DNA from: Taklimakanibacter deserti
GTDB lineage: Bacteria; Pseudomonadota; Alphaproteobacteria; Rhizobiales; Aestuariivirgaceae
DNA: 64,000 nt
Direction of reading: 5' to 3'
NCBI GenBank assembly: GCA_003574785.1
Contig: QORU01000013.1
Coordinates: 1-64,000, forward strand
Within the stretch, counting starts at the first letter, position 1; the number at the start of each line of letters is the position of its first letter. A model generated the notes under the pieces. The model was not told where the DNA came from and did not search any database. It saw only the letters and a program-made list of their open reading frames with translations. This document shows positions 50,556 through 64,000 of this stretch, piece by piece. Made by a program: the position numbers and the translations under genes.

Positions 50556-51668
50556 CTAGTCAGAAGCGAGCTTGGCCGAGACCTCGTCCGCGATGGCAAG
50601 GCTCGCGGTGAGACCGGGGCTTTCGATGCCGAAGAGATTGACGAGACCGGCAATGCCGTGATCGGCGGGGCCTGAGATCACGAAATCGGCGGCAGGCTCG
50701 CCTTGTTTCGAAAGTTTTGGCCTTATGCCGGTATAGCCGGGCTGCAGCCGGCCATCGGCGAGGGCCGGCCAGTAGCGGCGGATATCGGCATAGAAGGATT
50801 GGCCGCGCCGCTCATCCAGCGTGTAGTCGATACGGTCGATCCATTCGACGTCGGGCCCGAAGCGCGCCTGATGACCGAGATCGAGCGTCAAATGCACGCC
50901 GAGCCCGCCATCGACGGGGACGGGATAGATGAGCCGCGAGAAGGGCGCCTTGCCGGTGAGCGTGAAATAGCAGCCGCGGGCGAAAGTGAGCGGCGGAATA
51001 TGCTGCGCCGGGAAGCCTTTGAGCTTGCCGGCGACATCCTGCGCCCCGAGTCCCGCCGCGTTGATGACGCTCCGCGATAAAAATTCATAAGCCGTCCCAT
51101 CACCCGTCACCGTGCGCAGGACGATGCCCTCGGGCGTGATCCGGCCTCCTTCCACTTTCGTTTCGAAGGCGAAGACGGCGCCCTTCGCCTCGGCATCGCC
51201 CTCAAAGCTCAGCATCAGCGCATGGCTGTCGATGATGCCGGTCGAGGGCGAGGAGAGGGCGGCGACACAGGCAAGCTCGGGCTCCAGTTTTTGGGCCGCC
51301 GCCTGGTCGAGAAGGACGAGATCATGCACGTCGCAAGCCTCGGCCGCCGCCCTGATCTGCCGGAGTTTTGGCAATTGATCATCGCTGGTGGCGACGATGA
51401 GCTTGCCCAGGCGCTCATGGCCTATGCCGCGCTCCCTGGCATAGGCATAGAGCCGGTCACGCCCCCTGACGCAGAGCCGCGCTTTCAGGCTGCCTTTCGG
51501 ATAATAGATGCCGGCATGGATGACTTCCGAATTGCGCGAGCTCGTCTCCGTGCCGATGCCTTGAGCGGCATCGATGACGAGCACGTCGCGGCCAGCGAGC
51601 GCTAGAGCGCGCGCGACGGCGAGGCCGATGACGCCGGCGCCGATGACGGTGCAGTCGATTCTATCCAC
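50556..51668 (-). CDS. lhgO: FAD-dependent L-2-hydroxyglutarate oxidase-like protein
   Basis: 370 residues, DAO fold. The dinucleotide site is VIGAGVIGLAVARALA near residues 8-23; TSSRNSEVIHAGIYYP near 42-57 and GLVNLFGIESPGLTASLAIA near the C-terminus are hallmarks of the L2HGDH/LhgO group. LhgO oxidises L-2-hydroxyglutarate to 2-oxoglutarate, passing electrons to quinone or oxygen. It is transcribed with livF toward lower coordinates, 151 bases of repeat sequence apart, and would fit a lysine/glutarate or five-carbon amino-acid pathway also using the GabT-like gene at 61521. Confidence 0.83.
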   Translation of the reverse strand: MDRIDCTVIGAGVIGLAVARALALAGRDVLVIDAAQGIGTETSSRNSEVIHAGIYYPKGSLKARLCVRGRDRLYAYARERGIGHERLGKLIVATSDDQLPKLRQIRAAAEACDVHDLVLLDQAAAQKLEPELACVAALSSPSTGIIDSHALMLSFEGDAEAKGAVFAFETKVEGGRITPEGIVLRTVTGDGTAYEFLSRSVINAAGLGAQDVAGKLKGFPAQHIPPLTFARGCYFTLTGKAPFSRLIYPVPVDGGLGVHLTLDLGHQARFGPDVEWIDRIDYTLDERRGQSFYADIRRYWPALADGRLQPGYTGIRPKLSKQGEPAADFVISGPADHGIAGLVNLFGIESPGLTASLAIADEVSAKLASD

Positions 51669-51712
51669 GCGACTAGACTACCCTCGCCAGAAATGTGAGC
51701 CAGACTCTCCCC

Positions 51713-51812
51713 ACTCGTCATGGCCGGGCCCCGACCCGGCCATCCAGGCTCGACGCCATACAGCTGCTGCATGGATGGGCTGGATGGCCGCCTCAAGGGC
51801 GGCCATGACGAG
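51713..51812. repeat. Intergenic inverted-repeat element (CTCGTCATGGCCG family)
   Basis: The ends CTCGTCATGGCCG (near 51715) and CGGCCATGACGAG (near 51799) are exact complements, enclosing GGGCCCCGACCCGGCC and other short dyads. This 100-base unit resembles the CTCGTCATGGCCGGG palindromes widespread between genes in Bradyrhizobium-like genomes. It separates livF from lhgO. Confidence 0.7.
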
Positions 51813-51819
51813 TTGGGGC

Positions 51820-62816: not shown

Positions 62817-62824
62817 GAGAGGAC

Positions 62825-63526
62825 ATGGCCGATCGTCCGGTCGTTCTGGTGGCAGGCGCCTCGCGCGGGCTGGGCCTCGAGCTCGCCCGCCAGTTCGCCG
62901 AACGCGACTGGCAGGTGATCGCGACCGTCCGCAATCTCGATGGCGCGCCAGATCTGGCTCGCCTCCAGACGGAAAGGCCGGATCGCATCGCGATCAATCG
63001 CCTCGATATCGCCGATCAGAGCAGTGTCGCGGCCTTCAAGGCCGAGATCGGCGATCGGCGCCTGGACGTCCTTTATATCAACGCCGGAATCATGGGACCG
63101 CGGCATCACGACCCGATGCGGATCAGCGATGATGAATTCCAGTCCCTGATGCTGACCAATGCCTTGGCGCCGGTCCGCTTCGCCACGACGTTCCTCGGCA
63201 ATCTGCGCGAGGGTACCGGCGTCTTCGTCTTCATGACCTCGCAGCTCGGCAGCGTGGCGCGCAATGAGGGCGGCGATTACGACCTCTACCGGGCCAGCAA
63301 GGCGGCGCTTAACACCCTGACCCGCAGCTTCGTGGCGAGGCTCGGCGCCAGGAAGCTCGCCGTCCTCTCGTTCCATCCCGGCTGGGTGAAGACCGATATG
63401 GGCGGCGCGAAGGCGCCGCTCGATGCCGAGACGAGCGTCGCCGGCATGATCGGCATCGTGGAAGGAGCGCGCGGCACCAGCGGCCACCGCTTCCTCGATT
63501 ATCAGGGCAATGTCATTCCTTGGTGA
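62825..63526 (+). CDS. SDR-family oxidoreductase
   Basis: 233 residues, starting nine bases after the gabT stop with AGGAGAGG upstream. Rossmann motif VAGASRGLGLELARQFAERD, INAGIMGP, catalytic serine in TSQLGS and Y-x3-K in LYRASKAAL. It is short and CsgA/C-factor-like, lacking a long C-terminal substrate region. In context it could reduce or oxidise the semialdehyde or a keto-intermediate, but substrate is unknown. Its stop abuts the stop of the convergent amidohydrolase gene with no gap. Confidence 0.87.
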   Translation: MADRPVVLVAGASRGLGLELARQFAERDWQVIATVRNLDGAPDLARLQTERPDRIAINRLDIADQSSVAAFKAEIGDRRLDVLYINAGIMGPRHHDPMRISDDEFQSLMLTNALAPVRFATTFLGNLREGTGVFVFMTSQLGSVARNEGGDYDLYRASKAALNTLTRSFVARLGARKLAVLSFHPGWVKTDMGGAKAPLDAETSVAGMIGIVEGARGTSGHRFLDYQGNVIPW

Positions 63527-64000
63527 TCAGAGCCGGAACGCCTCGCGCACGGCGCCGCTGATGCCGTCAACAAATTCGTCGAACAACAGCTTGCCTTTTT
63601 CCGGCGAAGCACCCTTGGCGGTCGCGAGGATTCCCGTCTGCGTGCCTTGCGCCGGATCGACCGGGAAGAGATCGTAGGGCGGGTAGATGACCGGTTTCTG
63701 GTTGGGCACCCGGTCCATATGGATGAGATCGGGCCTGAGATGGAGCAGGACCGATGTGGTCATCACGCCCGCATGTTCGAGCGGCCAGCCGGGAAAACCG
63801 TCCGGGAACACCTTCGCGAGCGTCGCCTCCGAGATGAACTCGAAATAGCGCACCTTCATCACCTTGAGGTCGCCGATGCCCCAGGAGTTGAGATCCTTCA
63901 GAGCGAGGTCGATCCCTTCGATGAGGAACATCTCGTTCTCATAATGCGAATCGAGAATGAGGATGCGGCGCGCGCCATGGCGGGCGAATTCGCAGATGAT
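63527..64000 (-). CDS. Creatininase-family amidohydrolase, 5' part beyond the window
   Basis: The C-terminal 157 residues are visible; the frame is open to the right edge, so the ATG at 63931 is internal. The segment HGARRILILDSHYENEMFLI is the creatininase-family signature (metal and active-site region, usually NGHxGN or NGHYEN; here DSHYEN). Later parts include HAGVMTTSVLLHLRPDLI. Family members hydrolyse creatinine, formamides or hydantoin-like amides using Zn or Mn. Convergent with the hyu-gabT operon and likely part of the same cyclic-amide pathway. Confidence 0.85.
   Translation of the reverse strand: MICEFARHGARRILILDSHYENEMFLIEGIDLALKDLNSWGIGDLKVMKVRYFEFISEATLAKVFPDGFPGWPLEHAGVMTTSVLLHLRPDLIHMDRVPNQKPVIYPPYDLFPVDPAQGTQTGILATAKGASPEKGKLLFDEFVDGISGAVREAFRL

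What the first reader, a model, noticed from the sequence alone, without database searches (positions are those of the whole stretch)
50556..64000. Candidate cyclic-amide (lactam/hydantoin) uptake and degradation island
Seen: one cluster combines a split HAAT importer, a FadR-type regulator, HyuA+HyuB, a coupled Cys4 microprotein, a GabT-like omega-aminotransferase, an SDR, a creatininase-family amidohydrolase and an LhgO-like oxidase. Known: HyuAB relatives open 5-oxoproline, hydantoins and caprolactam with ATP; GabT removes the amino group from 4-aminobutyrate or 5-aminovalerate; LhgO recovers 2-hydroxyglutarate in glutarate metabolism. Inference: the substrate is a lactam or imide opened to an omega-amino acid, then transaminated. 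I know of no described pathway with exactly this gene set.
Basis: partly seen in the sequence, partly recalled or inferred. Interest (0 to 1): 0.8.

Follow-up and report, generated by a model that had tools for sequence, protein, structure and literature searches.

The report
Three-part ATP-driven ring-opening enzyme operon
A bacterial import-and-breakdown operon encodes a distinct branch of the ATP-driven enzymes that open cyclic amides, accompanied by a tiny zinc-finger-like protein that is fused to the enzyme itself in many relatives.

Summary
In detail: all named genes lie at the stated coordinates (creatininase is cut by the window edge). The core, hyuA-hyuB-cys4 with a HAAT importer, an FCD/GntR regulator and a GABA-type aminotransferase, is conserved: 28 of 28 HyuB-matched loci have cys4 beside hyuAB and 17 of 28 have gabT after it, in alpha- and betaproteobacteria. 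The SDR (7 of 28) and creatininase (window and one relative) are loosely attached. A lactam opened to an omega-amino acid is plausible but unproven; succinate-semialdehyde dehydrogenase follows gabT in Rhizobiaceae relatives, favouring GABA.

The unexpected part is Cys4: a 66-aa TRASH/L24e-like zinc-finger protein without a family match, overlapping hyuB by 4 nt, fused to the HyuB N-terminus in many relatives, and tied to one fully supported HyuAB clade. That clade also has Glu-His where other HyuB have a metal-binding Asp: 46 of 46 clade pairs versus 0 of 16 others. In a separate sample of 41 genomes, 3 of 105 full or partial HyuB have it, exactly those with Cys4. Ketone carboxylases have a different four-Cys subunit that hydantoinases were reported to lack. 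I read this as a new three-component variant of the ATP-dependent cyclic-amide hydrolases.

The parts
50556..51668 (-). DAO-family FAD oxidase (resembles LhgO, below its cut-off); a DAO-type oxidase holds this position in 12 of 28 loci
51820..52590 (-). LivF-type ABC ATPase of the HAAT importer (ORF ends; true start may be internal)
52731..53942 (+). HAAT substrate-binding protein (start inferred; ORF opens at 52623)
53998..54753 (+). LivG-type ABC ATPase
54761..55675 (+). LivH-type permease
55672..56715 (+). LivM-type permease, 4-nt overlap with livH
56712..57449 (+). GntR/FCD regulator, 4-nt overlap with livM
57480..59504 (+). HyuA, ATP-binding subunit; DIGGT, DMGGT and PGP motifs present
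59516..61219 (+). HyuB, metal subunit; ligand positions D38, H97, E100, H122 with clade-specific H101
61216..61416 (+). Cys4 (C16, C19, C40, C44), TRASH/L24e-like zinc-finger protein, 4-nt overlap with hyuB; proposed third subunit
61417..61520 (.). extra stretch with a palindrome between cys4 and gabT, not present in L001 where the two genes overlap
61521..62816 (+). GabT-type class III aminotransferase (TTG start)
62825..63526 (+). SDR (NF006035/PRK08177, 280 bits, cut-off 251), semi-conserved
63527..64000 (-). creatininase-family C-terminal part, cut by window edge; the intact 86% identical relative in L002 passes TIGR04448

Best explanation
The operon imports a small cyclic amide through the HAAT transporter and opens it with a three-component ATP-dependent enzyme, HyuA-HyuB-Cys4. 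Inferred steps: HyuA uses ATP to activate the substrate (or bicarbonate), HyuB hydrolyses the activated ring at a metal site with Glu in place of the usual Asp, and Cys4 binds one structural zinc and docks on HyuB as a fixed subunit. In the window's lineage the product is most likely an omega-amino acid (4-aminobutyrate before 5-aminovalerate) that GabT transaminates; the semialdehyde is oxidised by succinate-semialdehyde dehydrogenase, encoded next door in Rhizobiaceae and presumably elsewhere here. Shown by computation: gene content, conservation, the Cys4-HyuB link, clade monophyly, the Glu-His signature. Inferred: the chemistry, the complex, zinc binding, the substrate. My separate odds: Cys4 is part of the enzyme 0.9 (as subunit, or as assembly factor in the rival below); hydrolase rather than carboxylase 0.75; GABA or 5-aminovalerate as product here 0.6; 2-pyrrolidinone as substrate 0.3.
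For: Cys4 beside hyuAB in 28 of 28 loci. Of 10 Cys4 hits in genomes that were not brought in by HyuB, 9 lie in one gene run with clade HyuAB. Cys4::HyuB fusions: the 120 listed of 1084 hits all cover the whole Cys4-plus-HyuB query part; the four Cys are invariant in 53 of 53 aligned fusions. No Cys4 hit up to E = 1 in 14 outgroup plasmid loci. Clade support 1.0. Glu100 and His101 in 46 of 46 clade pairs; Asp100 in 16 of 16 others, none with His101. In 105 HyuB of 41 genomes, 101 have Asp, 3 Glu-His, 1 a degenerate partial match; the 3 are the HyuB next to or fused with the only 3 Cys4 hits in the same 41 genomes (all candidates scored). ATP motifs present. GabT passes TIGR00700; SSADH of L029 passes TIGR01780 (706.1 against 646.35). 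PxpA-, AccC- and PxpC-like genes follow the aminotransferase in L016. The fusion model matches N-methylhydantoinase and caprolactamase best.
Against: No biochemical data. Other clade members have different neighbours: a class II aldolase (L017 tested, L020 and L023 by clustering), sugar-type ABC transporters with an SDR (L033, L035), so the clade is not one pathway. SSADH is absent from the window and not found in L001 or L002. A four-Cys subunit is otherwise reported for the ketone carboxylases (PMC5214803, passages), which leaves a carboxylase open. In L032, L052 and L053 cys4 is about 6 kb from its hyuAB. The haloarchaeal Cys4 match is weak (E 2.1e-4; 4.7e-5). Two of the 16 outgroup pairs (L052_2, L053_1) share a locus with a Cys4 gene, assigned by me to the clade pair there.
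Confidence: 0.6

Rival explanations
1. The enzyme is an ATP-dependent carboxylase that works like acetone or acetophenone carboxylase, with Cys4 in the role of their zinc-finger gamma subunit, and the aminotransferase acts later on another intermediate.
For: Apc and Acx have a small four-Cys subunit that hydantoinases were reported to lack (PMC5214803, passages). HyuA and HyuB are homologous to Apc/Acx subunits.
Against: HyuA scores 416.7 with N-methylhydantoinase and 379.1 with caprolactamase against 284.8 for Apc; HyuB 319.6 and 240.3 against 134.3. Cys4 has no PF08882 match; profile comparison aligns only 12 columns of one zinc knuckle at 28.9%. GabT and SSADH neighbours fit ring opening better.
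Confidence: 0.15
2. Cys4 is not a permanent subunit but a dedicated assembly or metal-delivery factor for HyuB, needed to load the unusual Glu-type site.
For: Cys4 goes one to one with the altered metal site; TRASH-type fingers are often linked to metal handling (recalled).
Against: Recurrent covalent fusion to HyuB favours a permanent role.
Confidence: 0.2
3. Creatinine or N-methylhydantoin catabolism: the neighbouring creatininase and HyuAB act on the same compound family.
For: The L002 relative is a creatininase above cut-off (335.4 against 235); creatininase-family genes also lie near HyuAB in L034 and L063.
Against: Creatininase is on the opposite strand and, among the 28 loci, seen only in L002, about 2 kb past the SDR; L001 ends before that point. 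GabT and SSADH do not fit. No creatinase or sarcosine oxidase was recognised in the cluster, though no dedicated search for them was made.
Confidence: 0.08
4. An ordinary two-subunit hydantoinase operon with a chance small ORF.
For: HyuAB operons are common (35 of 41 genomes of the order sample have HyuB).
Against: Cys4 keeps 14 invariant positions across sequences as low as 33% identical and is fused to HyuB in many genomes.
Confidence: 0.02

Closest known systems
Caprolactamase CapAB (Pseudomonas jessenii; PMC8453981, passages incl. abstract)
   Same: HyuA/HyuB fold, ATP motifs, counterparts of Asp41, His99 and His124 (D38, H97, H122)
   Different: Asp102 is Glu100 here and the next residue is His; Cys4 present; far below the CapA/CapB cut-offs (532.6 and 314.7 against 1000)
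OplAB of Pseudomonas putida KT2440 (PMC11033972, passages incl. abstract)
   Same: ATP-dependent opening of valerolactam to an omega-amino acid
   Different: Two components; only trace activity on gamma-butyrolactam reported
Acetophenone and acetone carboxylases (PMC5214803, passages)
   Same: Homologous large subunits and a small subunit with four conserved Cys
   Different: Gamma subunit is PF08882 with another Cys pattern and no detected homology to Cys4 beyond one knuckle
nmpABCDEF N-methylpyrrolidone cluster (PMC12866759 and PMC6987047, passages)
   Same: HyuAB-type pair, an amino-acid oxidase and succinate-semialdehyde dehydrogenase leading to succinate
   Different: No Cys4 mentioned in the passages seen; an oxidase where this operon has GabT; nmp sequences not compared here
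E. coli csiD-lhgO-gabDTP operon (recalled)
   Same: lhgO, gabD and gabT together, as in L029
   Different: No HyuAB or HAAT there; no CsiD recognised here

Membership tests
Hydantoinase/oxoprolinase family (HyuAB) | PF01968/PF05378 in A, PF02538 in B | tested here: met
Hydantoinase/oxoprolinase family (HyuAB) | ATP-binding DxGGT, DMGGT and PGP motifs in A | tested here: met
Hydantoinase/oxoprolinase family (HyuAB) | Asp-His-Asp-His metal site in B (CapB D41, H99, D102, H124) | tested here: not met
   three of four kept; D102 is E100 in 46 of 46 clade pairs
Caprolactamase | NF050156 and NF050157 curated cut-offs | tested here: not met
   532.6 and 314.7 bits against 1000
Acetone/acetophenone carboxylase | gamma subunit of family PF08882 | tested here: not met
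   no match of Cys4 at E 1e-3; hhalign 28.9% over 12 columns
Acetone/acetophenone carboxylase | carboxylase activity | not testable with these tools
   needs assay
TRASH / L24e-type zinc finger | CxxC...CxxxC with treble-clef fold | tested here: inconclusive
4-aminobutyrate transaminase | TIGR00700 cut-off | tested here: met
   543.4 against 506.65; the narrower GABA-AT models are below their cut-offs
L-2-hydroxyglutarate oxidase | NF008726 cut-off | tested here: not met
   191.7 against 299; the L029 oxidase at the same place passes, 602.4
Creatininase | TIGR04448 cut-off | tested here: inconclusive
   fragment 190.6 against 235; intact L002 relative 335.4
NMP degradation cluster nmpABCDEF | adjacent oxidase and SSADH | tested here: inconclusive
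   DAO oxidase present; no SSADH in the window; the primary paper and its sequences were not obtained

The most novel reading that the evidence does not exclude
HyuA-HyuB-Cys4 is a separate, obligately three-component branch of the ATP-dependent hydrolase/carboxylase superfamily, found in proteobacteria and probably haloarchaea, in which a TRASH-type zinc-finger subunit co-evolved with a Glu-His metal site in HyuB that binds a different metal or performs a different ring-opening reaction from known hydantoinases. It gained its zinc-finger subunit independently of the ketone carboxylases.
Probability: 0.6. Interest if true: 0.65.

Novelty: new variant of a known kind. Interest (0 to 1): 0.55.

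Why it matters
ATP-dependent lactam hydrolases are of interest for nylon monomers and solvents, and their mechanism (what is phosphorylated, what the metal does) is still open in the caprolactamase paper (PMC8453981, passages). A clade in which a metal ligand changed together with a new subunit is a natural experiment on that mechanism. It also gives a role to a small unannotated protein family (588 proteins at E up to 1e-3) and to the N-terminal domain of about 640-aa 'HyuB' entries, for which the precomputed Pfam column shows only PF02538. Calling all of these 'N-methylhydantoinase B' merges at least two kinds of enzyme.

Tried and rejected
Creatinine pathway as the main reading: creatininase is opposite-strand and rarely linked. 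Homology of Cys4 to the carboxylase gamma subunit: not detected beyond one knuckle. Shared operator palindrome in the livF-SBP gap: perfect 7-bp arms were found in 4 of 23 regions, none shared. Composition as evidence of an island: none. Structure of the Cys4-HyuB interface: the fusion model (pTM 0.81, mean pLDDT 75.7, low confidence in residues 1-10 and several loops) came without coordinates, so contacts could not be read. The ORF picker often chose wrong frames in these GC-rich loci; it was used only for clustering hints. Neighbours in Pseudomonas and Caballeronia loci could not be turned into a substrate; several gave no family match. Literature: no listing pointed to a zinc-finger or small subunit of two-gene hydantoinases or to this operon; listings were read, not all papers, and the library lacks most subscription journals; the primary NMP paper is not held.

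Caveats on counts: the 28 loci were found with HyuB patterns, so cys4 in 28 of 28 is conditional on that clade. Clade members (46 with the window) were set by a nearby Cys4 match (42, L034 by a weak one), plus three pairs added by hand (L032_1, L052_1, L053_2) whose Cys4 is about 6 kb away; close relatives are included. Second HyuAB pairs seen in L019, L020 and L032 did not meet the pairing rule and are not among the 16 others; L072 gave no pair. The tree used 48 of 62 pairs after 14 near-duplicates were dropped. Thresholds were 50% (HAAT), 40% (gntR), 60% (gabT), 35% (SDR) and 24% (oxidase) identity. In the 41-genome sample one search lists 111 HyuB matches: 105 were read; of 6 partial ones left out, 4 were read later (two Asp, one degenerate, one without the site) and 2 end before the site. 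One of the three Glu-His cases (G003) was the sample's centre, chosen because it has the locus. The Cys4 rates rest on 15-24 scored candidates a genome and include centres and genomes already known to have it. One weak Cys4 hit (G246, E 6.7e-4) is not beside hyuAB. NCBIfam was asked only up to E 1e-10 for the window's Cys4.
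Full report
What is there. The window end holds one co-directional gene run with a divergent pair in front: a DAO-family oxidase and livF on the minus strand, then SBP-livG-livH-livM-gntR-hyuA-hyuB-cys4-gabT-SDR on the plus strand, and a convergent creatininase cut by the edge. livH/livM, livM/gntR and hyuB/cys4 overlap by 4 nt, so translation is probably coupled.

Conservation. A genome-collection scan with HyuB gave 28 loci, in alpha-, beta- and gammaproteobacteria by their titles. 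All 28 have cys4 next to hyuA or hyuB. A full HAAT set precedes hyuA in 19 of 28, gntR in 17, gabT follows in 17, an SDR relative lies downstream in 7 and a DAO-type oxidase sits at the same divergent position in 12; some loci are cut by contig ends (L013 and L014 inside hyuA, L001 just past the SDR), so these are lower bounds. An SSADH gene follows gabT in L003-L009, L019, L028, L029 and L036; in L030 a more distant one precedes a different aminotransferase; none was found in the window, L001 or L002. The L029 SSADH passes TIGR01780 and the L029 oxidase is a true LhgO, unlike the window's.

Cys4 belongs to the enzyme. Its place varies (after hyuB, between hyuA and hyuB, before hyuA in the archaeal L034, beside gntR in L032, L052 and L053) while the link stays. 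It is fused to the HyuB N-terminus in Allorhizobium, and a search with that fusion (residues 1-200) gave 1084 hits, of which the 120 listed all cover the whole query part; 53 aligned fusions keep all four Cys. Searching genomes for Cys4 alone found it rarely: 3 of 369 in a class sample (two already known, one a weak hit without hyuAB), 6 of 397 in an order sample and 3 of 249 in a family sample, each including already known genomes. Of 10 hits not brought in by HyuB (second copies in G001, G002 and G010, and seven genomes), 9 lie with clade HyuAB.

A distinct clade with a changed metal site. Sixteen other HyuAB pairs came from 13 plasmid loci and from second pairs in L052 and L053. Cys4 has no hit up to E = 1 in the 14 plasmid loci fetched as outgroup. 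The concatenated tree (48 of 62 pairs, midpoint root) puts all 32 retained Cys4-type pairs in one clade with support 1.0, haloarchaeal L034 deepest. Mapping the caprolactamase ligands onto HyuB by the alignment gives D38, H97, E100 and H122. Position 100 is Glu in 46 of 46 clade pairs and Asp in 16 of 16 others; position 101 is His in 46 of 46 and 0 of 16. One search shows Asp at this place in N-methylhydantoinase, caprolactamase and acetophenone carboxylase, and the caprolactamase paper calls it fully conserved (PMC8453981, passages). A separate sample gives 105 HyuB from 41 genomes of the order of G003: 101 Asp, 3 Glu-His, 1 degenerate partial match; four further partial matches add two Asp, one degenerate and one without the site. 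Cys4 occurs in exactly 3 of the 41 genomes, at the three Glu-His genes (all candidates scored). One of the three (G003) was the sample's centre.

How it probably works. HyuA keeps the ATP motifs. By analogy with caprolactamase, HyuA activates the ring (or bicarbonate) with ATP and HyuB completes hydrolysis at its metal; that order is the published proposal for the relative and is not shown here. The model of a fusion protein matches N-methylhydantoinase, caprolactamase and the two carboxylases, and nothing else at E below 1e-3. Cys4 is expected to hold one structural zinc; whether it touches catalysis is unknown. GabT, and the SSADH next to it in relatives, suggest that the opened product is GABA or 5-aminovalerate. 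In L016 the aminotransferase is followed by PxpA-, biotin-carboxylase- and PxpC-like genes; YcsF proteins have been related to the lactam (2-pyrrolidinone) utilisation gene lamB of a fungus (PMC3412718, one passage). That supports a lactam theme for this relative without naming the substrate. Other clade members have aldolase, sugar-transporter or SDR neighbours, so substrates probably differ within the clade.

Comparison. Acetophenone carboxylase has a 15-kDa subunit with Cys22, Cys25, Cys75 and Cys78, conserved in acetone carboxylase, and its authors state that hydantoinases lack orthologs of it (PMC5214803, passages). Cys4 would be an analogue: comparison with PF08882 proteins aligns one zinc knuckle only. 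The nearest published pathway logic is the nmp cluster for N-methylpyrrolidone (PMC12866759 and PMC6987047, passages).

Verdict. What is new is the three-component, Glu-His branch of HyuAB: a new variant of a known kind.

Noticed in passing
window 61395-61520: Palindromes (the one at 61461-61482 occurs once in the window) lie between cys4 and gabT, which overlap in L001; the extra stretch also changes the Cys4 C-terminus.
   Followed up: partly
window 48998-50545: A Rieske-ferredoxin/ferredoxin-reductase gene is split into two ORFs of the same frame, so it looks interrupted; it lies between lacI and the FAD oxidase, which are neighbours in L001 and L002.
   Followed up: partly
L002 13998-17400; L034 2411-7100: A primary-amine oxidase and creatininase-family genes lie beside Cys4-type HyuAB both in an alphaproteobacterium and in a haloarchaeon.
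   Followed up: no
L016 13387-17641: A biotin-dependent 5-oxoprolinase-like gene set (PxpA-, AccC- and PxpC-like and a urea-carboxylase-like part) directly follows hyuAB-cys4-aminotransferase.
   Followed up: partly
L024 and L026: Two metagenome-derived relatives carry two hyuB copies after hyuA-cys4; L024 also has a B12/pterin methyltransferase-like protein, a DAO oxidase and an SDR there.
   Followed up: no
L032, L052, L053: These clusters carry two HyuAB pairs, one canonical (30-39% identical to the window's) and one of the Cys4 clade, with one Cys4 between gntR and the HAAT genes.
   Followed up: partly
L029 versus window, L015, L030: The same divergent position holds a true LhgO in L029 and a different DAO subfamily in the window, L015 and L030.
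   Followed up: partly
G010: One metagenome-derived gammaproteobacterial genome has 14 PF08882 matches besides two Cys4-type HyuAB loci.
   Followed up: no
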